From: Rhodococcus erythropolis NBRC 15567
Lineage (GTDB): Bacteria > Actinomycetota > Actinomycetes > Mycobacteriales > Mycobacteriaceae
Assembly: GCF_001552595.1 (NCBI RefSeq)
Contig: NZ_BCRM01000001.1
Span: 1,116,001 to 1,180,000, forward strand
Length of the DNA stretch: 64,000 bases
Direction: 5' to 3'
Of the stretch, positions 3,061 through 12,768 are shown one piece after another. Each line of letters starts with the position of its first letter. Within the stretch, counting starts at the first letter, position 1. The notes under the pieces are model-generated. The model did no database searches. It saw only the letters and a list, made by a program, of their open reading frames with translations, and was not told the DNA's origin. The position numbers and the translations under genes are program-made.

Positions 3061-4838
3061 ACGTCCTCAACGACCGAATCCGCATAGAGGGCTGCAATTT
3101 CGGACGCGTACTTCTCGGCTATCGGCTTGCGCCTGAGCTTCATCGTCGGTGTCAGCTCGTCGCCGCCTGGCTCCCAGAACATGGTGAGTACGTGAAACCG
3201 CTTGATCTGCTCGGCCCTCGACAGACGCGAGTTTCCCTCGGCGACAGCAGTTGCAACGACGTCGACGATCCGAGCGTCCTTGGCGAGTACCGCGGCCTCG
3301 GCCGCAAGTCCCAGTGAGCGTGCCGCTCCGACCGCGGCGTCGGCGCTGAGAGTGATCAACGCTGTGTTGAACTTTCGGCCGTCTCCGATCGTCACGACCT
3401 CACCGATCAACGACGACGACGTCTTCACTGCCGTCTCGATGGCGGCCGGTGACATGTTCTTTCCCGACGCGTTGATGATCAACTCCTTCTTGCGATCGAT
3501 CACCGTGAGGTAGCCGTCCGCGTCGGCGGTGACGACATCTCCGGTCGAGAGCCACCCGTCTGCACTGATCGCTTCGGCCGTTTTTGCCGGTTCGCCGCGG
3601 TACCCCTTCATGACCAACGGGCCTCGAACCAGTAGCTCGCCGTCCGCCTCGATGCGCATTTCCATGCCTGGGAGTAACTTTCCGACCGTTCCGAGCTTGG
3701 TCGGCTCGGCCGGCGCGGTGCTCGCGATGCATGTCAGCTCGGACATTCCCCAGATCTCCGAGATCGGAACTCCCAGGGCCGCAAAGAATGCCAACGTGTC
3801 CGGCGGAATTGGTGCGGCGCCAGAGATGGCCCACTTCAGTTCGGCAAAGCCGAGTTTCGCACGCAGAGCGGACAGGACCATCGTATCGGCTCGGGCGTAG
3901 TCCGCTTCCAGTTCGGCGGGGACTGTTTCACCGGCTCGTAAGTGTGCGAGACGAGTGCGACCGACGTCGAGTGCCCACTGCAACGCCGCTCGCCGCGCGT
4001 CGTCCGGTTCGTTGGCGACAGCCGATTCGACTGCAACTTTCAGCTTTTCCCACACACGGGGGACGCTGCCCCAGATCGTGGGGCGACAGTCCGGAAGCGC
4101 GGCCGCTACCTGGCTCGGATCCGGCACGACAGTGATCTGGGTGCCGAACACCATTTGCATGTACAGGCAGGTGAGCCGATCGGCGATGTGCGCCGACGGC
4201 ATGTACGAGGTGATGCGGTCACCGAATTCGACGGGGAGTACAGCGCTTACGGCGTTGGTTTCGAACAACAGGCATGCATGAGTCGTCTCGACGCCCTTGG
4301 GGTTGCCGGTCGTGCCGGAGGTGTAGATCAACGTGGCGACGTCGTTCGGTTTCACCGCACGCCAGGTGCCCTCGAAATCGAAATCCGATGCGGCAGAATT
4401 CTTCATCTGCTCCAGGGTCACGGTGCCGGGCTGGTGGACATGCGATTGCGCGTCGACGACGACGATCGTCTCGAGTGTGGCGCCCGAGCGGCGGACCGTA
4501 TCCACGTACCGGTCTTCGCAGACGAGAACCCGTGCACCGGAATTGGCGAGGATGTAACGGATGGCTTCGGGTGCCGACGTGTTGTAGATGGAGAAGGACG
4601 TCGCGCCGAGATGTTGGGCACCGACGTCGATCGGATAGAACTCGATGCGGTTACTCATCATCAAGGCAACCGTATCGCCGTGTCCCACGCCGATTCCGGC
4701 CAATCCCGCGGCAACCTCGCGGACCTGTTCGGCGTACTCGCGCCACGTCAGTGTTCGCGCATCGCCGATGTCTCGCAGGGCCACCGAGTCGGGCGCTACC
4801 GCCGACACTCGCTGGAAGGCTGCACACAACGTGGTCAT
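3036..4838 (-). CDS. Long-chain acyl-CoA synthetase (AMP-forming), FadD family
   Basis: A 600-residue adenylate-forming enzyme. The AMP-binding P-loop is YTSGTTGNPKG (172-182); later motifs are WGMSELTC, GWLSTGDV and the hinge DRKKELIINASGKNMSP. The inserts and length resemble the FadD11/FadD15 long-chain group more than short-chain synthetases. It activates a carboxylic acid to acyl-AMP and then acyl-CoA in the cytoplasm. I chose the ATG at 4838: AGGAGATCATC sits before it and the family N-terminus (MTTLCAAFQR...) begins there; the frame is open further upstream but not family-like. The ATG overlaps the SDR stop (ATGA). It is last in the seven-gene operon, so the likely substrate is the acid made by the upstream oxidative enzymes (inference). 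Confidence 0.9.
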   Translation of the reverse strand: MTTLCAAFQRVSAVAPDSVALRDIGDARTLTWREYAEQVREVAAGLAGIGVGHGDTVALMMSNRIEFYPIDVGAQHLGATSFSIYNTSAPEAIRYILANSGARVLVCEDRYVDTVRRSGATLETIVVVDAQSHVHQPGTVTLEQMKNSAASDFDFEGTWRAVKPNDVATLIYTSGTTGNPKGVETTHACLLFETNAVSAVLPVEFGDRITSYMPSAHIADRLTCLYMQMVFGTQITVVPDPSQVAAALPDCRPTIWGSVPRVWEKLKVAVESAVANEPDDARRAALQWALDVGRTRLAHLRAGETVPAELEADYARADTMVLSALRAKLGFAELKWAISGAAPIPPDTLAFFAALGVPISEIWGMSELTCIASTAPAEPTKLGTVGKLLPGMEMRIEADGELLVRGPLVMKGYRGEPAKTAEAISADGWLSTGDVVTADADGYLTVIDRKKELIINASGKNMSPAAIETAVKTSSSLIGEVVTIGDGRKFNTALITLSADAAVGAARSLGLAAEAAVLAKDARIVDVVATAVAEGNSRLSRAEQIKRFHVLTMFWEPGGDELTPTMKLRRKPIAEKYASEIAALYADSVVEDVYEPAPCA

Positions 4839-5797
4839 GATGATCTCCTGGATGCCTTTGTCAGGGCTGATGCATTCGTCGGGGCCGCAGCGGTGGTTCT
4901 GTCTTCGAGTTCGCGGATCAGGTCGTGTGCCTGTTTGTCCCTGGCCAGATAGCCGTCGGCCAGGACATTGATGAATCCGCGTCCCCACGCCCAGGGTTCC
5001 CAGGCAGCGGGGGCAAGGGTCCGGGCGGCGCGGCGCGCGATCGCGTCTGCGATCACCGTGGCGGCACGGTCCGGGGAGATTCGATGACGGAGGGGACCGG
5101 GTAGTCGAGCGTCGAGTTTGCGCCCGATCTCGTCGTCGTCGAGTGTGGCGCGTGCAAGTTGTGTATCCACCATCCCGAAGTACGCGATGCCGGCAGTGGC
5201 GCCGTAGCCGGCAACCTCGAGACGCAGCGCCCGGCCGAGCGCTTCGACCCCAGCCTTGCTGATCATGTACGAAGCGCCGCCCAAACCGGGGGCGAACGAC
5301 GCTGCCGATGACACGACGACGACGTGCCCACTGTTGCGGATCACCTCGTCGATGGTCGGATGCACTGTGTTGAAGACGCCGGTGAGATTGACGTCGAGCA
5401 CGCGATCGAATGCGTCGGGATCGATCTGGCGCAATGTTGCCGGGGGAGGGGTGATTCCGGCGTTGGCCACCACGACGTCGATTCTGCCCAGCCGCTCGAT
5501 GATCGTTTGCACGGCTGCGGTCATGCCGTCCCGATCTCGGACATCGGCCGTCACCGTCACGACTCGCTGTGACTCGAATGAGCGCTCGGCCGTTGCCAAT
5601 GAACTTTCGTTGACGTCGACCAGCGCCACGGTGGCCCCACGCCGGTGGAGAGTGCGCGCCAGCGCGGAACCGATACCGTCGCCTCCGCCGGTGATCAGCA
5701 CGACCTTTCCGGCGACGTCGTAGTCGATTCGGCGTCCGGGCAGTGGAATGCCCAGATCGCGGACTGTTCCCGCAATTGCGGACATGCGTCCCGTCAT
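4835..5797 (-). CDS. Short-chain dehydrogenase/reductase (SDR)
   Basis: A 320-residue classical SDR. The cofactor loop is TGGGDGIG (36-43), the structural motif NAG is at 112-114, and the catalytic set is Ser163/164, Tyr177 and Lys181 (YMISK). Asp61 after the second beta strand (VALVDVN) favours NAD(H). An N-terminal extension of about 28 residues and a long tail after the Rossmann core resemble SadH-type mycobacterial SDRs. A second Met at residue 5 is an alternative start. It likely interconverts a hydroxyl and a keto group on a lipid-like substrate between the oxygenase step and CoA activation (inference). The stop overlaps the synthetase ATG by four bases; the aldehyde dehydrogenase ends only 4 bp before this start. 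Confidence 0.88.
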   Translation of the reverse strand: MTGRMSAIAGTVRDLGIPLPGRRIDYDVAGKVVLITGGGDGIGSALARTLHRRGATVALVDVNESSLATAERSFESQRVVTVTADVRDRDGMTAAVQTIIERLGRIDVVVANAGITPPPATLRQIDPDAFDRVLDVNLTGVFNTVHPTIDEVIRNSGHVVVVSSAASFAPGLGGASYMISKAGVEALGRALRLEVAGYGATAGIAYFGMVDTQLARATLDDDEIGRKLDARLPGPLRHRISPDRAATVIADAIARRAARTLAPAAWEPWAWGRGFINVLADGYLARDKQAHDLIRELEDRTTAAAPTNASALTKASRRSS

Positions 5798-5801
5798 TGC
5801 T

Positions 5802-7235
5802 TCAGTGCCTTCCGTGTAGAGCGCGGATGAGAACCTTGACCAGCCAGTCGATTCGGGCGGTCCGTCGAAACGTCGTCAGTGGTAGGGGCGAACGGAATCG
5901 TTGCCGGGTCGTCGAACGAGCGTAGGTGAACTCCTTCAGACCATCTGGGCCGTGAACGCGTCCGAAACCAGATGCTCCGACCCCACCCAGTGGCAGGTTG
6001 GGAACCGCGGCATACATCACGTAAGAGTTCACCGACGCTCCTCCGGATCGGAGCCGATCGGCAACAGCCACTCCATGCTTGCCGAACACGCTTGCTCCCA
6101 ATGCATATGGCGACGCATTGACCAACTCCACCGCCTCGTCCATCGAGGCGACCTTGGTGATCGTCATCGTCGGGCCGAAAGTTTCCTCCGTGACGGCGAG
6201 GCTGTCTTCGGGGACGTCGACCATGATGGTCGGTTGCACGTACTGGCCGGAGATCGAGCCGAGCCCTCCGAGAACGACACGTCCACCCCGCGACATCGCG
6301 TCGTCGATGTGGCGCCGGATTACAGCCACTTGCGCGGGCATGGTGATCGGACCGATCTTGTCCTCGGCACCCGGACCGGCATGAACTCGGGCAGCCAAAG
6401 TGATTGTCTTGTCGATAAACTCGTCGTAGACCTGTTCGTGCACGTATACACGCTCGACGCCCAGACAGGTTTGACCGGAGTTGGACAATGCGCCCCACAC
6501 CGCAGCATCCGCGGCGGCACCAACATTTCCGTCGGCATCAAGGATGAGCGCGTCCTTACCGCCACATTCCATCAACACCGGTGTGAGGGTCTCGGCGCAC
6601 GCTGCCATGACTTTCTTGCCCGTCGCGGTCGATCCGGTGAACCCGATCTTGTCGACACCGGCCAGGCACAGTGCCGCGCCGACCGAACCGTCGCCTGTGA
6701 CAACTTGCAGCACAGGATGTTCAGGGACGACCTCGGCAAACGCTCGGACCAACCATTGCCCGACTGCCGGGGCGAACTCACTCGGCTTGTAGACCACGGC
6801 ATTGCCTGCAGCCAGCGAGAACGAGAGCGAACCGAGCGGGGTGAAGACCGGATAGTTCCACGGACCGATCACACCGATCACCCCGAGAGGTCGATACTCC
6901 ACCGAGGCGGCCTGATTGACCGTCAACAAACTGGAGCGGACGCTGCGCCTGCCCAATACCTTTCGGGCATTCTTCGACGCCCACGCGAGATGTTCGAGTG
7001 CCATGGCGATTTCGAGCATCGCGTCAGGGTGCGGCTTGCCCATGTCCCGGTGCACGACGTCGGCGAGTTCGGATGCTCGACGAGCGATGATTCCACGCCA
7101 CCGATCCAGTCGACGAGCGCGTTGCTCGAATGTCAGTTCTGCCCACCACTCGGAAGCAGTTCGGGCGTCGCGCACTGCCTGTGTCACCGTGTCGTCGGAC
7201 GCCTGTGTGGTCGTGTCGATCTCGGTCGCCGTCAT
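5802..7235 (-). CDS. Aldehyde dehydrogenase, NAD(P)-dependent
   Basis: A 477-residue ALDH superfamily enzyme. Catalytic residues are visible: oxyanion Asn127 (GPWNYP), general base Glu223 (LMECGGKD) and nucleophile Cys257 (SGQTCLG); the cofactor site has FTGSTATGKKV (199-209). Short length and a hydrophobic/basic tail (IDWLVKVLIRAL) recall class 3/coniferyl and fatty-aldehyde dehydrogenases, where such a tail can touch membranes. The ATG at 7235 has AAGGAACTCCACA before it and overlaps the SRPBCC stop (ATGA); longer upstream reading frame is rejected because it overlaps the neighbouring genes. Predicted to oxidise an aldehyde intermediate to the acid used by the adjacent acyl-CoA synthetase. 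Confidence 0.9.
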   Translation of the reverse strand: MTATEIDTTTQASDDTVTQAVRDARTASEWWAELTFEQRARRLDRWRGIIARRASELADVVHRDMGKPHPDAMLEIAMALEHLAWASKNARKVLGRRSVRSSLLTVNQAASVEYRPLGVIGVIGPWNYPVFTPLGSLSFSLAAGNAVVYKPSEFAPAVGQWLVRAFAEVVPEHPVLQVVTGDGSVGAALCLAGVDKIGFTGSTATGKKVMAACAETLTPVLMECGGKDALILDADGNVGAAADAAVWGALSNSGQTCLGVERVYVHEQVYDEFIDKTITLAARVHAGPGAEDKIGPITMPAQVAVIRRHIDDAMSRGGRVVLGGLGSISGQYVQPTIMVDVPEDSLAVTEETFGPTMTITKVASMDEAVELVNASPYALGASVFGKHGVAVADRLRSGGASVNSYVMYAAVPNLPLGGVGASGFGRVHGPDGLKEFTYARSTTRQRFRSPLPLTTFRRTARIDWLVKVLIRALHGRH

Positions 7236-7732
7236 TGTGGAGTTCCTTGAAGTGTGTGGTGGACGGCGCCGTCGGCCCAGCTGCGAGTGACGCGTTCGAG
7301 GATCGGTCGGGACAGAGCCAGAATCGGGGCGAACCACGGCTGCGCTTGTACGGCGAATGTCCAGGTGAGGCGGCTGCCTGTCGAAGTCGGTTCCAGCACC
7401 AGATCTTCGGCGAAGCGTTTGAACCCCGGCAGTGACGCCGACTCCACGTAGAACGTCATTCGGTGCCCCTCGTCCCAGCGGAAGAATCTCTCGTTCAGTG
7501 CAGCAAAAGCGCCGGCGCGCACGGTTCGGGTAGTCCCGATGCCGAATGGTCTGGCCGAGGTCCAGTCGGCTCCGGTGATCCCGCGCGCCCACGACGTGAG
7601 CGCTCCGTCCGAGGTCAACGTCTGCCACAAGCTTTCGCACGTCGCTTCGGATTCGATCCGGTGAGTGATCACCAGCGGCGCGGATCGGACGAAGTCTGCG
7701 TCGGCTGCCGCAAGAGAGAATTTTCCCCTCAC
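7232..7732 (-). CDS. SRPBCC (START/Bet v 1-like) family protein
   Basis: A 166-residue protein with the SRPBCC helix-grip pattern: VITHRIESEATCESLWQTLTS near the start, WARGITG, FGIGTTRTVRA in the middle and a long C-terminal helix (WFAPILALSRPILERVTRSWADGAVHH). This fold encloses a hydrophobic cavity for lipids, polyketides or aromatic ligands. It lies inside the oxidative operon, with four-base overlaps at both ends (GTGA with the reductase, ATGA with the aldehyde dehydrogenase), so it may hold or hand over the hydrophobic substrate. Start GTG 7732 is set by the overlap. No catalytic residues can be assigned. Confidence 0.8.
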   Translation of the reverse strand: MRGKFSLAAADADFVRSAPLVITHRIESEATCESLWQTLTSDGALTSWARGITGADWTSARPFGIGTTRTVRAGAFAALNERFFRWDEGHRMTFYVESASLPGFKRFAEDLVLEPTSTGSRLTWTFAVQAQPWFAPILALSRPILERVTRSWADGAVHHTLQGTPQ

Positions 7733-8820
7733 AGGTCCACCACCAAAGATGCACCGGTGGAACGTGATCGACAGGTCAACATCGAATCGGCACGTTCGGA
7801 TTCGGTGAGCAAGGTGTCTCGATGATCGACGCTCCCCGAGAGCACCCGAACCTTGCACGTACCGCAGAAGCCCTGTTGGCAGGAATACGCGACTCCGGGA
7901 AGTGCACGTCGTATCGCAGCCAAAGCACTTTCGGACTCGCCCACATCGACGGTGAGACCGGTGCGCGCCAGATGCACCGTGAACTCCTTGCCGTCGACTA
8001 CCGGGAGTGGGGAGAACCTCTCGCTGTGCACCGATCCGGTCGGATTGCCGGCGAAGGTCGCCGCGCGCACCATGTTCATCAGCGGCGCCGGTCCGCACGT
8101 GTACACCGCGGCACCGGGATCCGCAGCAGCGACCAGTGTTTCGATATCCGTCGGGCCCAACTCGTCGTCCGGTCGGATGGTTACCCGGCCGCTGGAGTAT
8201 TCCTCGATCTCGTCGAGAAATGGCATGGCCGTCCGAGTTCGTCCGAGATAATCCAAACGCCACGGGATTCCGCGGCGGTGACAACGTTGCACCATGGGAA
8301 GGAGCGGAGTGATCCCGATTCCGCCCGCAACGAAGAGGTACGACGGAGCAGCGACAAACGGAAATGCATTGCGTGGCCCTCGAACGTCCACAACCATGCC
8401 GGGTTTCAGCGACTCGTGTATCTCGCGCGAGCCGCCCCCACCCTCGTCGATCCTCCGGACGGCGATCCGATACGAGGACAAGTCGTCGGGGTCGCCGCAC
8501 AGCGAATACTGTCGTTGCCTTCCCGAGGGGAGAAAGATGTCGAGGTGGGCGCCGGGAATCCACGACGGAAGGGTGATTCCTTCCCTCGGGGTCAAGGTGA
8601 CACTCAGGACGTCGTCGCACTCTGACCGGACGGACTTCACGTCCAGAGTCATGTCGAACCCGCTGTAGCGGACCGGGCTGGGGCGCGAAAGTATGTGCGC
8701 TGCTGGACTTGCTGCAAAGATTCGGCGGTATGCGCCGGTGGCTTGCGCGGCAAACCTCAACGACCGGGTCGGTGTGAAGTCGGGTGCGTCGTGGGGACTG
8801 TCGGCAGTCGTCTTGTTCAT
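7729..8820 (-). CDS. Phthalate-dioxygenase-reductase-type flavin/2Fe-2S reductase
   Basis: A 363-residue electron-transfer protein. Flavin site RQYS (103-106), pyridine-nucleotide loop GGIGITP (166-172), CGPAPLM (242-248), and a C-terminal plant-type 2Fe-2S domain with C314-x4-C319-x2-C322-x27-C350. The order FNR-NAD-2Fe-2S is that of phthalate dioxygenase reductase and VanB. About 55 extra N-terminal residues precede the flavin domain. The ATG at 8820 overlaps the upstream gene's stop (ATGA). No Rieske oxygenase or P450 is nearby; the adjacent predicted di-iron protein is the obvious electron acceptor (inference). Confidence 0.9.
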   Translation of the reverse strand: MNKTTADSPHDAPDFTPTRSLRFAAQATGAYRRIFAASPAAHILSRPSPVRYSGFDMTLDVKSVRSECDDVLSVTLTPREGITLPSWIPGAHLDIFLPSGRQRQYSLCGDPDDLSSYRIAVRRIDEGGGGSREIHESLKPGMVVDVRGPRNAFPFVAAPSYLFVAGGIGITPLLPMVQRCHRRGIPWRLDYLGRTRTAMPFLDEIEEYSSGRVTIRPDDELGPTDIETLVAAADPGAAVYTCGPAPLMNMVRAATFAGNPTGSVHSERFSPLPVVDGKEFTVHLARTGLTVDVGESESALAAIRRALPGVAYSCQQGFCGTCKVRVLSGSVDHRDTLLTESERADSMLTCRSRSTGASLVVDL

Positions 8821-9749
8821 CCTGCGCTCGCTTCGGAAGAACGATTGGCAGCAGGCGAGCGAGCGAGGTAACGCATGGCGACGTCCATGTCCCCGATCTG
8901 GGAAGGATGGAAGCTCGGCCGCAGATACGGAGGAATCTCGGTGATCAGGAATTTCATGTTGGGTACCAGGCCACGACGGGTGGCGCTTATCAGTTGGAGA
9001 GGCCACAGTCGGCCCTTCGTCGTGGACGGGTCCTGTCGGAACAGGTAGTTCATCGAGGCGATGAACAGCACGAACAATGTGAAGCTGGCCAGCAGCGCCG
9101 TGCGAACGCGTCTGGCGTAGCTGCCGTCCACGTACATGTAGGCGTCGAAGGCTACGTTGCGGTGTTCGACTTCCTCGGCGCCGTGCCACTTGACCATGTC
9201 GAGCATCATCGGGTGCATGCCGGCATCTTCGAGGGCGGGATCGGTGAGCAGCCATTCCCCGACCACTGCCGTGTAGTGCTCCATGGCGGCAAACAAGCCG
9301 AGACGTTCACAGAGCCAGGCGTGCTTGGCTTTTCCGGTCAATCCTTTGTCGCCCAATATCTTGTCCACGAGCCAGTCCATCCGGCGTGACATCGGTTTCA
9401 TGTCCATGCCGAGGTCCGCAAGATGCTCGCGTGCACCTTTGTGCGACGACGCGTGTGTTGCTTCCTGGCCGACGAATCCCACCACCTCTTCGTGCAGGCG
9501 GGTGTCCTCGATGAGCGGGAGTGCTTCGGCGAGCGTTGCGGACATGGCCCGCTCTCCCTCGGGTAACACGAGATGCATGAAGTTGATGACGTGGGTGACC
9601 ATCGGTTCGTTCGGCACGTAATGCAGTGGTACGCCGTCCCAGTCGAAATCGACGTCACGGGCGGCGATCGCATGTGCTTCGTCGGTGTAGCGGCGAGCGC
9701 CGGACGGTGCGACGACGGGTGTGCCTCGGAAGGCGTTGATGCCGAGCAT
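8817..9749 (-). CDS. PF10118-type 'metal-dependent hydrolase'; residue pattern of a di-iron carboxylate oxygenase
   Basis: A 310-residue protein that I place in the family usually called predicted metal-dependent hydrolase (PF10118). Its acidic/His residues follow a di-iron pattern: Glu64 or Glu66, E96-x-x-H99 (QEATH), Glu157 (AMEHYT) and E193-x-x-H196 (EEVEH). The spacings (about 32, 61 and 36) resemble the four-helix bundles of R2-type and AurF-like proteins. Residues 214-236 are hydrophobic (membrane contact possible), and His103 and His158 lie beside the core. The ATG shares one base with the BVMO stop (TAATG); the stop overlaps the reductase start. I infer an O2-activating oxygenase or desaturase fed by the adjacent reductase rather than a hydrolase; this is not proven. 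Confidence 0.8.
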   Translation of the reverse strand: MLGINAFRGTPVVAPSGARRYTDEAHAIAARDVDFDWDGVPLHYVPNEPMVTHVINFMHLVLPEGERAMSATLAEALPLIEDTRLHEEVVGFVGQEATHASSHKGAREHLADLGMDMKPMSRRMDWLVDKILGDKGLTGKAKHAWLCERLGLFAAMEHYTAVVGEWLLTDPALEDAGMHPMMLDMVKWHGAEEVEHRNVAFDAYMYVDGSYARRVRTALLASFTLFVLFIASMNYLFRQDPSTTKGRLWPLQLISATRRGLVPNMKFLITEIPPYLRPSFHPSQIGDMDVAMRYLARSPAANRSSEASAG

Positions 9750-11305
9750 TATCGGCTCCTCACGGTTTCTCGAGCAGTGGTGAGTGCTGCAGACGAGACG
9801 GGTTGTACCTGCGCGTAGTGAGCGAGGTCGGCTCGTTTGGTCCTGGCGCGGAATGATCGGTTGAATCCGGGATAGAATGTGTAGTTGCGGCCGCCGTCGA
9901 CGAGGTAGTAACTACTGCACCCGCCGGCGTTCCACACGCTGGTGGCGAGTCGGCGGTCTGTCGCGCGTACGAACTCGCGTTGCACGTCTGCGCGGACGTC
10001 GATGCTGCCGATGCCGCGCTCGTCCATTTGAAGAATGCAGCTCACGATGTACTCGACCTGGGCTTCGATCGTGACGACTTGCGAGGTGTAGACCACGGAA
10101 TTGGGTCCGAGGATCATGAAGAAGTTCGGAAAACCGCTGATAGTGGTGCCGAGGAAGGCCTCGGCACTGCCGTTCCACGTCTGCGCGAGGCTGCGGCCGT
10201 CCTGGCCTCGGATGATGTCGAAAGACGGGTTGTCTCCCATCCGAAAGCCGGTTCCCATGACTATGGTGTCGACTTCCCGGAAGGTTCCGTCCGCGGTGAG
10301 AACTCCGCGCTCCTGCACCTCGACGATTCCGTCCGTCACCACCTCCACATTGGGTGACGCCAGCGCGGGATAGTAGGTGTTCGAGAACGTCGGACGCTTG
10401 CATCCGAATGCGTAGTGGGGGAGCAGCTTTGCGCGAAGCTCCGGGTCCCGCACCTGCCGGCGAAGGTGTGCTCGGCCGAGTGCGGCCAGCCCTTTGAGAA
10501 GTGACGGCTTGTACACGAATCCGGGTACCAGGGCTTCTTGAAGCAGGTCGAGTCCCTTGCGTGCCAGTCGTTGGGTGAGCGGCACCCGCTCGAAGAGAGC
10601 GCTTGGCCAGCCGGTCATCGGCTGATCCGGATGCGGCAGGATCCACGTCGGTGTCCGTTGGAACACGGTCAACGTGTCCGCGAGCGGTTGCAGTCTGGGG
10701 ATGATCTGCACCGCAGAGGCGCCGGTGCCGACCACGGCTATCCGCTCACCGCGAAGGTCGTGGTCGTGGTTCCAGTCCGCGGTGTGGAACATCTGACCAC
10801 GAAACGATTCGAGCCCGGGAAGGTCGGGTGTGGCTGGGGCACTGAACGGGCCGGTGGCCGCGACCAGGAACTGTGCCTCCCAGACGGTTTCCGCAGTGTG
10901 TACCCGCCAGATCTGGGCTTGCTCGTCCCACGAAGCTTCTGTCACGTCCTGGTTGCAGTGGAAATGACCGGCCAGTCCGAAGCGATGGACGCAATCCCGG
11001 AGATAGTCGTAGATCTCGGGCTGTAGCGGATACAGCCGCGTCCAGTTCGGATTGGGCGCAAACGAGAACGAATACAGAATCGACGGGATGTCGCACTGTG
11101 CACCGGGGTAGGTATTGACCTGCCAGGTCCCCCCGGGCTCCGCGGCACGTTCCAGAACGACGAAGTCGTCGATCCCGGACTGCTTCAAGCGGACAGCCGT
11201 TCCGATGCCGCCGAAACCGGCTCCGATGACGACGACTCGTGTTCGGCGAGTTCGAGTTTCCTCGTCACCGGCCGATGGCCCCGAGGTTGGGTCGATGTCG
11301 ACCAT
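9749..11305 (-). CDS. Flavin-containing (Baeyer-Villiger-type) monooxygenase
   Basis: A 518-residue class B flavoprotein monooxygenase. FAD loop GAGFGGIG (28-35), the fingerprint F168-R-G-Q-M-F-H174-T-A-D-W178 and the NADPH loop GTGASA (193-198) are all present; the residue after the fingerprint Trp is Asn instead of the usual Pro/Asp. Such enzymes insert oxygen next to a ketone or oxygenate heteroatoms using NADPH and O2. It is the first gene of the seven-gene operon, facing two TetR genes across a 183-bp operator region. Neighbouring SDR (alcohol to ketone) and downstream aldehyde dehydrogenase and acyl-CoA synthetase fit a ketone-to-ester-to-acid route. It resembles MymA-type enzymes of mycobacteria (inference). 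Confidence 0.9.
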   Translation of the reverse strand: MVDIDPTSGPSAGDEETRTRRTRVVVIGAGFGGIGTAVRLKQSGIDDFVVLERAAEPGGTWQVNTYPGAQCDIPSILYSFSFAPNPNWTRLYPLQPEIYDYLRDCVHRFGLAGHFHCNQDVTEASWDEQAQIWRVHTAETVWEAQFLVAATGPFSAPATPDLPGLESFRGQMFHTADWNHDHDLRGERIAVVGTGASAVQIIPRLQPLADTLTVFQRTPTWILPHPDQPMTGWPSALFERVPLTQRLARKGLDLLQEALVPGFVYKPSLLKGLAALGRAHLRRQVRDPELRAKLLPHYAFGCKRPTFSNTYYPALASPNVEVVTDGIVEVQERGVLTADGTFREVDTIVMGTGFRMGDNPSFDIIRGQDGRSLAQTWNGSAEAFLGTTISGFPNFFMILGPNSVVYTSQVVTIEAQVEYIVSCILQMDERGIGSIDVRADVQREFVRATDRRLATSVWNAGGCSSYYLVDGGRNYTFYPGFNRSFRARTKRADLAHYAQVQPVSSAALTTARETVRSR

Positions 11306-11488: not shown

Positions 11489-12145
11489 ATGACGGATACC
11501 GAGGCTCGGCGCACCGGCCCGCGCAGGTGGCGTGGGCAGGAACCAGAAGATCGCCGCGCCGCGCGCCGGGCACAGCTGATCGAAGCCGGGTTGCAGATCA
11601 TGGGCACCGAGGGTGCGGCCGCCGCGACCATGCGTGCGACCTGCCGCGAGGCTGCGCTGACCGAACGGTACTTCTACGAGAGCTTCGCCAATCGTGACGA
11701 ACTGCTGGTCGCCGTGCTCGACGAGGTCGTTCTCGGGGCACGCGACACTATTCTGGACGCTCTCGAGGCGGCGCCTTCCGAACCGTCGGCCCTGATCCGT
11801 CACGTGGTGAAGGCCTTCACCACCTACGTATTCAAGGATCCGCGCCGTGGACGCATCATGTTCGTCGAATCCCAGGCGGAACCTGCGCTGTGGGATCGAG
11901 GGCGAGAATTGATGGCGGAGTTCACCAATCCGATCTCCGCGTCGCTCGAGCTGATGTACGGCGGCGAGGCAACCGACTCCGCGAACTCCGAACTCAATTC
12001 GGTGGGGCTGTTCGGTGCCCTCGCGTTCATCTATCAGGCGCACACCCCGTCCTCCAAGATCTCTCGAAAGCGTTTGGTGGAACACATTTCGCTCATGGTC
12101 GAAGCGCAGGCGACGGTCAACAGCACGCCCGCGAGAAAAGAATGA
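11489..12145 (+). CDS. TetR-family transcriptional regulator (first of a pair)
   Basis: A 218-residue one-domain regulator with an N-terminal TetR helix-turn-helix (RAQLIEAGLQIMGTEGAAAATMRATCREAALTERYFYESFANRDELLVAVLDEV, about residues 28-82) and an all-helical ligand domain. It is divergent from the Baeyer-Villiger operon and its start is 70 bp from the last operator palindrome, making it the most likely local repressor. The stop overlaps the next TetR gene's ATG by four bases. The inducer is unknown; by context a lipid, ketone or acyl-CoA is plausible. Confidence 0.9.
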   Translation: MTDTEARRTGPRRWRGQEPEDRRAARRAQLIEAGLQIMGTEGAAAATMRATCREAALTERYFYESFANRDELLVAVLDEVVLGARDTILDALEAAPSEPSALIRHVVKAFTTYVFKDPRRGRIMFVESQAEPALWDRGRELMAEFTNPISASLELMYGGEATDSANSELNSVGLFGALAFIYQAHTPSSKISRKRLVEHISLMVEAQATVNSTPARKE

Positions 12146-12768
12146 CGTCCGCGTCGGCCACAGGCGGAAAGCGTCTCGGTCCTGAAGACCGGCGTGAGCA
12201 GATCATTGTCAGCGCGGCAAAGGTTTTCGAGGAGAAGTCTTTTGCCGACGTCTCGATGACCGAGTTGGCCAAGGCGGCCGGGGTCGGTCGTCCGCTGCTC
12301 AATCATTACTTCGGCTCCAAGCGGGAGTTGTACCTCGACGTCGTGCGGCGATTCGTCTTCATTCCCGAAGTGGCGGTGGACCGCATTCCGCGATCGGCGA
12401 GCCAGGAGAAGCGGATCGGCGCCGTGATCGATCGGTGGCTCGACGTCGCCTGGCGTCATCGCGACATGTGGATCTCGACTGTCATGTCCGACGACCTCCG
12501 CCGTGACCCCGAGATGGACCGGATCCTGCAGGACGCTGACGACGTTGCTGCGCGACGGATGATGGATGCGCTCGAGATTCGACCGAGTGAAGGCAGCGAG
12601 GCTGCTGTTCATTCGATGATCGTGGCGTACGGAGGATTGGCCAAGGCCGCCAGTAAGCAGTGGTTGGTGACGGGAGCGCTCGACCGCGAACAGGTGCACC
12701 TTCTGCTGGTACACAGTTTGCTCGCCATCGTGCGTGACGTTCTGCCGGCGTGCGAGGCGGATTCCTGA
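12142..12768 (+). CDS. TetR-family transcriptional regulator (second of a pair)
   Basis: A 208-residue TetR protein: helix-turn-helix SAAKVFEEKSFADVSMTELAKAAGVGRPLLNHYFGSKRELYLDVV (about residues 24-69), then a helical effector domain. The ATG at 12142 overlaps the preceding tetR stop (ATGA), so the pair is translationally coupled; the frame is open further upstream but only inside the first gene. The two proteins differ clearly in sequence, so they are not a recent duplication. Only 4 bp separate it from the convergent acyl-CoA dehydrogenase. Possible targets are the operator cluster at 11355-11419 or the palindrome at 14018. Confidence 0.88.
   Translation: MTSASATGGKRLGPEDRREQIIVSAAKVFEEKSFADVSMTELAKAAGVGRPLLNHYFGSKRELYLDVVRRFVFIPEVAVDRIPRSASQEKRIGAVIDRWLDVAWRHRDMWISTVMSDDLRRDPEMDRILQDADDVAARRMMDALEIRPSEGSEAAVHSMIVAYGGLAKAASKQWLVTGALDREQVHLLLVHSLLAIVRDVLPACEADS

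What the first reader, a model, noticed from the sequence alone, without database searches (positions are those of the whole stretch)
8817..9749. PF10118 'hydrolase' looks like a di-iron oxygenase paired with its own reductase
Seen: Glu64/66, E96xxH99, Glu157, E193xxH196, with gaps of about 32, 61 and 36 residues, the pattern of ferritin-like di-iron carboxylate enzymes (R2, AurF, desaturases). Known: phthalate-dioxygenase-type reductases (the next gene, overlapping by four bases) feed oxygenases, yet no Rieske or P450 gene is near. Inference: the protein is an O2-activating oxygenase or desaturase and the reductase is its electron donor, so the 'hydrolase' label would be wrong and the pair a new two-component oxygenase.
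Basis: partly seen in the sequence, partly recalled or inferred. Interest (0 to 1): 0.85.

Follow-up and report, generated by a model that had tools for sequence, protein, structure and literature searches.

The report
Mislabelled hydrolase: likely di-iron oxygenase
A bacterial protein family labelled 'metal-dependent hydrolase' carries the metal-binding signature of iron enzymes that activate oxygen, and in this Rhodococcus operon and many relatives it sits beside its own electron-supplying reductase, so it is probably an oxygenase and not a hydrolase.

Summary
The gene (minus strand, 8817-9749, 310 aa) is PF10118 (E=5.1e-72). In 44 aligned rows (the window protein and 43 relatives, down to 19% identity, phage proteins included) E66, Q95, E96, H99, H103, E157, H189, E192, E193 and H196 are in 44 of 44; E64 is in 20 of 44. 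The pattern QExxH...E...HxxEExxH matches the three-histidine AurF-type di-iron set. The next gene is a phthalate-dioxygenase-reductase-type protein overlapping by ATGA. It lies directly downstream of PF10118 in 27 of 49 loci, all within one clade. No P450, Rieske or PF00487 match lies in the window. Best reading: a reductase-fed di-iron oxygenase, probably hydroxylating a lipophilic substrate for the neighbouring SDR and Baeyer-Villiger enzymes. My library searches showed no biochemical study of a PF10118 protein.

The parts
8817..9749 (-). PF10118 protein (310 aa), proposed AurF-type di-iron oxygenase component
   Evidence: Pfam PF10118 E=5.1e-72; invariant ligand set in 44 of 44 rows
9552..9554 (-). 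codon of E66 (equivalent of AurF E101), proposed ligand on helix 1
   Evidence: 44 of 44 rows; aligned to the AurF-family Glu by unforced hhalign
9441..9467 (-). Q95-E96-x-x-H99-x-x-x-H103, proposed helix-2 motif (E96, H99 ligands; Q95 second sphere; H103 extra invariant His)
   Evidence: 44 of 44 rows; QExxH as in CylC/NocO halogenases (PMC12101540, passages)
9279..9281 (-). codon of E157 (equivalent of AurF E196), proposed ligand on helix 3
   Evidence: 44 of 44 rows; aligned to the AurF-family Glu
9162..9188 (-). W188-H189-x-x-E192-E193-x-E195-H196, proposed helix-4 motif (H189, E193, H196 ligands; E192 second sphere)
   Evidence: 44 of 44 rows; HxxEExxH, same spacing as HxxD/EExxH of AurF
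9039..9110 (-). hydrophobic segment, residues 214-237, possible membrane-surface contact (weak)
   Evidence: best 19-residue Kyte-Doolittle mean 1.96 at 219; the most hydrophobic stretch lies in this place in 27 of 36 A2 rows; conservation has helical periodicity (2 of 1000 shuffles as high)
7729..8820 (-). reductase: flavin domain - NAD domain - C-terminal plant-type 2Fe-2S (phthalate dioxygenase reductase type), proposed electron donor
   Evidence: Pfam; PDB 2pia E=1.6e-53; best NCBIfam profile TIGR02160 PaaE E=7.7e-28, 97 bits against a cutoff of 421; adjacency
8817..8820 (-). ATGA overlap of PF10118 stop and reductase start
   Evidence: sequence
9749..11305 (-). type I Baeyer-Villiger/FMO-like flavin monooxygenase (fingerprint FRGQMFHTADWN), 1-nt TAATG overlap with PF10118
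   Evidence: Pfam; fingerprint; overlap
7232..7732 (-). SRPBCC/Polyketide_cyc2 protein (GTG start inferred)
   Evidence: Pfam E=1.2e-12; start candidates
5802..7235 (-). aldehyde dehydrogenase
   Evidence: Pfam E=9.4e-118; ATG 7235
4835..5797 (-). short-chain dehydrogenase (candidate alcohol-to-ketone step)
   Evidence: Pfam; NF004526 over its cutoff
11489..12145 (+). TetR-type regulator, divergent from the operon
   Evidence: Pfam
12130..12768 (+). second TetR-type regulator
   Evidence: Pfam

Best explanation
The PF10118 protein is a non-haem di-iron carboxylate enzyme of the ferritin-like, AurF-like kind. E66, E96, H99, E157, H189, E193 and H196 hold two iron atoms; Q95 and E192 are second-sphere partners. 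The overlapping reductase takes electrons from NAD(P)H through its flavin and C-terminal 2Fe-2S cluster and reduces the di-iron site, which then activates O2. In this operon the oxygenase most likely hydroxylates a C-H bond of a lipophilic substrate; the SDR oxidises the alcohol to a ketone and the Baeyer-Villiger enzyme turns the ketone into an ester, with the ALDH acting on a later aldehyde. Shown here: the residues, their invariance, the profile match, the gene pairing and the gene order. Inferred: fold, metal, electron transfer, reaction and substrate.
For: Ligand set in 44 of 44 rows, with Actinobacteria, Pseudoalteromonas, Acinetobacter, Nostoc and phages. Unforced hhalign aligns all seven ligand columns to AurF-family E,E,H,E,H,E,H, and E192 to the Glu where AurF itself has D226. 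Scores: AurF 29.0 and 29.8 (0 of 60 column shuffles reach either), R2 27.2 (0 of 60), versus the acyl-CoA dehydrogenase bundle 12.8 (31 of 60) and eight unrelated neighbour families 10.0-21.9. The AurF-family alignment is tied to solved AurF 3chh (E101 and D135-E136 numbering checked). QExxH and HxxDExxH are the motifs of CylC/NocO, where NocO's di-iron site was shown by Moessbauer (PMC12101540, passages). Reductase directly downstream, same strand, in 27 of 49 loci (14 of the 30 phylum-sampled ones; 11 of the 27 are near relatives L001-L011), plus 2 with one alpha/beta-hydrolase gene between; the label needs 4 changes on the tree against a shuffled mean of 14.4. PaaE, the best NCBIfam profile for the reductase though far below its cutoff, serves a ferritin-like di-iron epoxidase (recalled). 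BVMO in 14 of 14 and SDR in 13 of 14 loci of the window subclade, in two gene orders.
Against: hhalign's own probability is only 5-11% for AurF and 6% for R2. Reversed AurF profiles score 19.5 and 20.8, above the shuffle mean of about 14.6; a BVMO control reached 21.9 over 14 columns. An earlier run with A2 had 1 of 100 shuffles reach the AurF score. hmmsearch of the profile in PDB sequences gave no AurF or R2: the best hit was BesC at E=0.065, then a bacterioferritin at 0.26. FA_desaturase_2 and SDIMO alpha profiles did not stand out. With R2, E66 does not fall on a residue that I can equate with the first ligand. Helical periodicity of conservation is clear for only some segments (32, 5, 157, 835 and 2 of 1000 shuffles as high). 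20 of 49 loci have no such reductase, so the family as a whole does not depend on this partner. No fold model, no metal or activity data.
Confidence: 0.75

Rival explanations
1. The protein is a di-iron enzyme of the haem-oxygenase-like di-iron oxidase (HDO) fold (BesC, SznF, UndA kind), not of the ferritin-like fold.
For: BesC 7twa is the best PDB profile hit (E=0.13 and 0.065); the PF14518 profile scores 22.8, and its E40, H50, E106, H135, D139 and H142 align with E96, H103, E157, H189, E193 and H196. It would explain invariant H103.
Against: Lower score than AurF or R2 and level with the best of its 40 shuffles (22.7); invariant E66 has no partner and H99 falls on Ser; a gap is needed inside helix 2.
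Confidence: 0.12
2. A di-iron desaturase or epoxidase of fatty-acyl or other lipid chains, fed by the same reductase.
For: Reductase pairing; hydrophobic segment; lipid-type neighbours of some relatives: acyl-CoA ligase, mycolic-acid methyltransferase about 4 kb away, PaaI thioesterases.
Against: No profile similarity to acyl-ACP desaturases beyond shuffles (19 of 60 as high); the BVMO and SDR beside it ask for a ketone, hence a hydroxylation (inference).
Confidence: 0.2
3. An AurF-type N-oxygenase or a CylC-type halogenase.
For: Third histidine H189 as in AurF; Q95 as in CylC/NocO, where AurF has D135.
Against: The CylC motif HxxDExxH is HxxEExxH here; no carrier-protein, FAAL or peptide-synthase domain among the nine proteins scanned, PF10118 and its neighbours; PF11583 does not match the protein at E<=0.01.
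Confidence: 0.08
4. The database label is right: a metal-dependent hydrolase that happens to lie beside a reductase.
For: Pfam and RefSeq name; alpha/beta-hydrolase genes sometimes neighbour it. One paper lists PF10118 among candidate proteases (PMC8960859, one passage).
Against: No PDB sequence matches at E<=10 by phmmer, and none of the 3 and 4 weak profile hits is a hydrolase; carboxylate- and histidine-rich helix motifs fit a di-iron site; repeated redox-partner pairing.
Confidence: 0.04
5. The reductase serves another enzyme elsewhere in the genome, and PF10118 gets its electrons otherwise.
For: Relatives without the reductase keep the ligands (20 of 49 loci lack it; ligands); one paralogue has a class I ferredoxin reductase (Reductase_C) downstream instead (L092).
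Against: In all 29 loci with such a reductase it is downstream on the same strand, within about 1 kb, and only one copy was seen per stretch; no P450, Rieske or PF00487 match in the window.
Confidence: 0.12

Closest known systems
AurF (p-aminobenzoate N-oxygenase, PF11583, PDB 3chh)
   Same: E, ExxH, E, HxxD/EExxH with the extra helix-4 histidine; all seven ligand columns of the family align without forcing
   Different: Not a PF11583 match; Q95 replaces D135, E192 replaces D226; extra invariant H103, E195, W188, D82; paired with a dedicated reductase, which AurF lacks (recalled)
CylC/NocO dimetal-carboxylate halogenases
   Same: QExxH on helix 2, HxxxExxH on helix 4 (PMC12101540, passages)
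   Different: Asp of HxxDExxH is Glu here; shorter spacing between motifs (Q95-E192 is 97; NocO Q128-D282 is 154); no carrier-protein or FAAL domain among the window proteins scanned. No CylC sequence was compared directly.
Class I ribonucleotide reductase R2 (PF00268)
   Same: E96, H99, E157, E193, H196 align with the R2 ExxH...E...ExxH residues over 170 columns (that the aligned Glu151 is a ligand is recalled)
   Different: No histidine at the H189 position (Ile in the template); first ligand not aligned; different function
PaaABCE phenylacetyl-CoA epoxidase (PaaE reductase)
   Same: Di-iron ferritin-like oxygenase fed by a reductase with C-terminal 2Fe-2S (recalled); PaaE is the best NCBIfam profile for the window reductase, E=7.7e-28
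   Different: 97 bits against a PaaE cutoff of 421; the oxygenase here has no PaaA/PaaC Pfam match
Phthalate dioxygenase reductase (2pia) and the reductase part of self-sufficient P450s (6kbh, 6laa)
   Same: Same domain order, E=1.6e-53 and 6.5e-64
   Different: Those serve Rieske or P450 oxygenases, neither of which is in the window
BVMO_4041 of Rhodococcus erythropolis XP (sub-terminal alkane pathway)
   Same: Type I BVMO of 524 aa (window: 518) with Asn closing the fingerprint, acting on 2-dodecanone and 2-hexadecanone (PMC12724338, section 17)
   Different: Reported as 83.4% similar to RHA1 BVMO7, while the window BVMO is 69.7% identical to the R. opacus BVMO of the same operon: probably another paralogue; not established

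Membership tests
Ferritin-like di-iron carboxylate enzymes | E ... ExxH ... E ... ExxH ligand set, invariant | tested here: met
   E66, E96/H99, E157, E193/H196 in 44 of 44 rows and in 14 of 15 left-out rows, the fifteenth being partial
Ferritin-like di-iron carboxylate enzymes | Detectable profile similarity to established members | tested here: inconclusive
   AurF and R2 beat all 60 shuffles each; FA_desaturase_2 and SDIMO do not; hhalign probability at most 11%; 1 of 100 shuffles as high with A2
Ferritin-like di-iron carboxylate enzymes | Four-helix bundle bringing the ligands together | not testable with these tools
   Structure prediction switched off; helical periodicity only partly clear
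Ferritin-like di-iron carboxylate enzymes | Two iron atoms bound, O2 reactivity | not testable with these tools
   needs purified protein
AurF N-oxygenase family (PF11583) | Match to the PF11583 model | tested here: not met
   only PF10118 reported for the protein at E<=0.01
AurF N-oxygenase family (PF11583) | Third histidine on helix 4, HxxxExxH | tested here: met
   H189xxxE193xxH196 in 44 of 44 rows, aligned to the AurF-family His
CylC-type dimetal halogenases | QExxH and HxxDExxH motifs | tested here: not met
   QExxH met in 44 of 44; the second motif is HxxEExxH
Haem-oxygenase-like di-iron oxidases (HDO) | Profile similarity and E...H / HxxxDxxH ligand pattern | tested here: inconclusive
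   score 22.8, best of 40 shuffles 22.7; E66 has no partner, H99 falls on Ser
Soluble di-iron monooxygenases (PF02332) | Profile similarity to Phenol_Hydrox | tested here: not met
   score 13.5, 16 of 40 shuffles as high
Two-component (oxygenase + reductase) systems | Dedicated NAD(P)H reductase encoded with the oxygenase, conserved across loci | tested here: met
   ATGA overlap; adjacent in 27 of 49 loci, clustered on the tree
Two-component (oxygenase + reductase) systems | Reductase-dependent turnover | not testable with these tools
   needs enzyme assay
Metal-dependent hydrolases (current label) | Homology to a hydrolase of known structure | tested here: not met
   no PDB sequence at E<=10 by phmmer; the 3 and 4 weak profile hits include no hydrolase

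The most novel reading that the evidence does not exclude
All of PF10118 ('Metal_hydrol') is an unrecognised branch of three-histidine, AurF/CylC-like di-iron O2-activating enzymes; one large actinobacterial clade has a dedicated PDR-type reductase; and in the Rhodococcus operon the pair is a sub-terminal C-H hydroxylase that makes the alcohol which the SDR and Baeyer-Villiger enzyme convert to an ester, that is, a candidate for the poorly defined first step of sub-terminal oxidation of hydrocarbon-like substrates.
Probability: 0.3. Interest if true: 0.85.

Novelty: new variant of a known kind. Interest (0 to 1): 0.62.

Why it matters
If right, a curated family found in Actinobacteria, Proteobacteria, a cyanobacterium and phages carries a wrong functional label that already steers work: one paper listed PF10118 proteins among candidate proteases for lanthipeptide maturation (PMC8960859, one passage). 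It would add a branch of AurF-like di-iron oxygenases with a conserved dedicated reductase (I know of no other AurF-like one; recalled, not searched), and give a testable candidate hydroxylase for operons that hold Baeyer-Villiger enzymes. PMC12724338 (passage) says that few studies have elucidated the enzymes of the sub-terminal alkane pathway.

Tried and rejected
Plain hydrolase reading: set aside for lack of any hydrolase similarity and because of the redox pairing. E64 as ligand: rejected, 20 of 44 rows. Acyl-ACP-desaturase-like reading: FA_desaturase_2 profile no better than shuffles. SDIMO-like reading: no better than shuffles. Identity of the window BVMO with BVMO_4041: left open because the identities do not fit. 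A fusion of PF10118 with the reductase in one frame was sought in 54 loci and not found. Literature searches: 'PF10118' (1 paper), predicted metal-dependent hydrolase/COG3687/ferritin-like (0), metal-dependent hydrolase/AurF/di-iron, halogenase/CylC/AurF/Metal_hydrol, COG3687/IPR016516/UCP07580/Metal_hydrol/PIRSF007580/predicted metal-dependent hydrolase, metal-dependent hydrolase with Rhodococcus/BVMO/transcriptome (30 of 46 listed), with diiron, with ferritin-like, with VanB family oxidoreductase (0): no title, abstract start or passage that I saw reports a biochemical study of a PF10118 protein. Passages were read in PMC8960859, PMC12101540, PMC4520260, PMC8406957, PMC12724338 (plus its section 17), PMC10637631, PMC4428276 and PMC12753306; the 'metal-dependent hydrolase' mentions in PMC10637631 and PMC4428276 could not be tied to PF10118 by sequence. 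Subscription papers are not held. I could not check whether Pfam, InterPro or structure databases already place PF10118 in the ferritin clan. No CylC/NocO sequence was compared directly.
Full report
WHAT IS THERE. The window is from a Rhodococcus; the closest PF10118 protein fetched is 99% identical, from R. qingshengii. The finding's gene lies on the minus strand, 8817-9749, and is a full PF10118 'Metal_hydrol' protein (E=5.1e-72). It is the second gene of a tightly packed run: Baeyer-Villiger/FMO-like monooxygenase (9749-11305), PF10118, reductase (7729-8820), SRPBCC protein (7232-7732, start inferred), aldehyde dehydrogenase (5802-7235) and SDR (4835-5797), with two TetR-type regulators divergent. 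The BVMO stop and the PF10118 start overlap by one base (TAATG), the PF10118 stop and the reductase start by four (ATGA). That they form one transcript is inferred from this packing.

THE OBSERVATION. In 44 rows (the window protein and 43 relatives from Actinobacteria, Gammaproteobacteria, Nostoc and phages; A5; realigned) the following are in 44 of 44: E66, D82, Q95, E96, H99, H103, E157, W188, H189, E192, E193, E195, H196. E64 is in 20 of 44. Fifteen rows had been left out of A5 as near-copies, partial or fetched later; 14 keep all 13 residues, and the partial row L068 (98 residues) shows the helix-4 motif and a gap at 157. Indels spare the motifs; positions with more than 20% gaps are 1-19, 133-141, 172, 245-246, 267-269 and 304-310.

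WHICH DI-IRON PATTERN. The helix-4 motif is H189xxE192E193xxH196. AurF has H223xxD226E227xxH230 and, on helix 2, D135E136xxH139 (E101 and D135-E136 checked on the chain; D135, D226, H139, H230 and E196 are named in passages of PMC12101540; H223 and E227 recalled). CylC/NocO have QExxH and HxxDExxH; nine active-site residues of NocO were all essential, and its di-iron site was shown by Moessbauer (same passages). PF10118 has Q95 like the halogenases and a Glu where AurF has D226. The AurF-family profile from 16 genome sequences (A3; PF11583 matches, some of them weak) reaches solved AurF (3chh, 2jcd), a VlmB homologue (6d9f), an R2-like ligand-binding oxidase and other chains in the PDB (8 distinct sequences at E<=0.01).

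PROFILE COMPARISON AND CONTROLS. Without forcing, hhalign aligns E66, E96, H99, E157, H189, E193 and H196 with E, E, H, E, H, E, H of the AurF family and E192 with the Glu before the ExxH; with R2 it aligns E96, H99, E157, E193 and H196 with the R2 motif residues, while E66 falls on a Glu that I cannot equate with the first R2 ligand. Scores against column shuffles: AurF 29.0 and 29.8 (0 of 60 each; reversed profiles 19.5 and 20.8), R2 27.2 (0 of 60; reversed 10.7), FA_desaturase_2 16.3 (19 of 60), acyl-CoA dehydrogenase C-terminal bundle 12.8 (31 of 60); PF14518 (HDO-type) 22.8 (0 of 40, best shuffle 22.7), SDIMO 13.5 (16 of 40), and eight unrelated neighbour families 10.0-21.9, the highest being BVMO over only 14 columns (1 of 40). 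With the smaller alignment A2, 1 of 100 shuffles reached the AurF score. hhalign's own probabilities are low (at most 11%). hmmsearch against PDB sequences found no AurF or R2; the best was BesC, an HDO, at E=0.13 and 0.065, so I keep HDO as a rival fold. Both folds are O2-activating di-iron enzymes (recalled).

THE REDUCTASE. Domain order is flavin, NAD, C-terminal 2Fe-2S. Closest solved chains: reductase parts of self-sufficient P450s (E about 7e-64) and phthalate dioxygenase reductase 2pia (1.6e-53). The best NCBIfam profile is PaaE, at 97 bits against a cutoff of 421; PaaE feeds a ferritin-like di-iron epoxidase (recalled), so this reductase architecture has a di-iron precedent. No P450, Rieske or PF00487 match lies in the window.

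HOW GENERAL THE PAIR IS. I scanned the flanks of 49 loci for relatives of the window reductase (phmmer, over 100 bits): directly downstream, same strand, under 200 bases between the matched stretches in 27; one alpha/beta-hydrolase gene between in 2; none in 20. Eleven of the 27 are near relatives of the window (L001-L011). Among the 30 loci from an even sample of 296 genomes of the phylum (17 of 296 with PF10118) it is 14 adjacent, 2 near, 14 none. On a tree of 44 rows all 19 reductase-paired rows lie in one 24-row clade; the label needs 4 changes against a shuffled mean of 14.4. Deep branches and the phage, Nostoc and gammaproteobacterial rows in the tree lack it but keep every ligand, so the enzyme site is probably older than this partnership. 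One paralogue (L092) has a class I ferredoxin reductase next to it instead.

LIKELY ROLE. In the 14 loci of the window type (L001-L011, L077, L096, L100) the BVMO is present in 14, the reductase in 14, the SDR in 13 (the contig of L005 ends early), the SRPBCC protein in 12 and an ALDH in 10; the BVMO is upstream of PF10118 in L001-L011 and downstream of the reductase in L077, L096 and L100. Hydroxylation, oxidation to a ketone and Baeyer-Villiger insertion is the simplest sequence that uses these enzymes; this is inference, and no esterase was found among the operon proteins scanned. The most hydrophobic 19-residue stretch lies just after the last motif in 27 of 36 A2 rows (window: residues 219-237, mean 1.96). 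An acyl-CoA ligase, a P450-ferredoxin-reductase set and thioesterases and a mycolic-type methyltransferase near some relatives point to lipophilic substrates. BVMO_4041 of R. erythropolis XP, which also ends its fingerprint in Asn, oxidises 2-dodecanone and 2-hexadecanone (PMC12724338, section 17), but the identities suggest that it is another paralogue.

VERDICT. My estimates: di-iron oxygen chemistry about 0.9; reductase as its donor in this operon about 0.8; hydroxylase rather than desaturase, N-oxygenase or halogenase about 0.6. I saw no biochemical study of a PF10118 protein in the library searches named under Tried and rejected, and I could not check whether structure databases already place it among ferritin-like proteins.

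Noticed in passing
L067/L069, L070, L072, L075, L076 (viral contigs) and L082 (Pseudomonas phage record OQ658364, 3899-4747): Viral contigs and a phage record encode PF10118 proteins with every ligand kept: phage-borne candidate di-iron oxygenases. In L067 the next ORF (4891-5478) has no Pfam or PHROG match at E<=0.001.
   Followed up: partly
own genome G000 contig C20, 137527-138300 and 140151-141005 (L109): A PF10118 paralogue with its own adjacent reductase lies about 1.8 kb from an AurF-family (PF11583) gene on the other strand.
   Followed up: no
L081 (Acinetobacter sp. Tol 5 plasmid pTol5) and other Acinetobacter records of the plasmid collection: 52 of the 72 plasmid-collection records with a PF10118 relative are Acinetobacter (some of chromosome size); in pTol5 the gene lies near a 2Fe-2S protein, P450 and FAD oxidoreductase set and PaaI thioesterases.
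   Followed up: no
PMC8960859: The 'hydrolase' label has led to PF10118 being listed as a candidate protease group for lanthipeptide maturation (one passage).
   Followed up: no
window 9749-11305: The operon's BVMO fingerprint ends in Asn (FRGQMFHTADWN) rather than Pro/Asp; five further near-full-length BVMO paralogues in the genome are 39-43% identical.
   Followed up: partly
L095 6011-6925 and L094 5983-7038: In two actinobacterial paralogues an alpha/beta-hydrolase gene stands between PF10118 and the reductase, as an esterase or epoxide hydrolase step might.
   Followed up: partly
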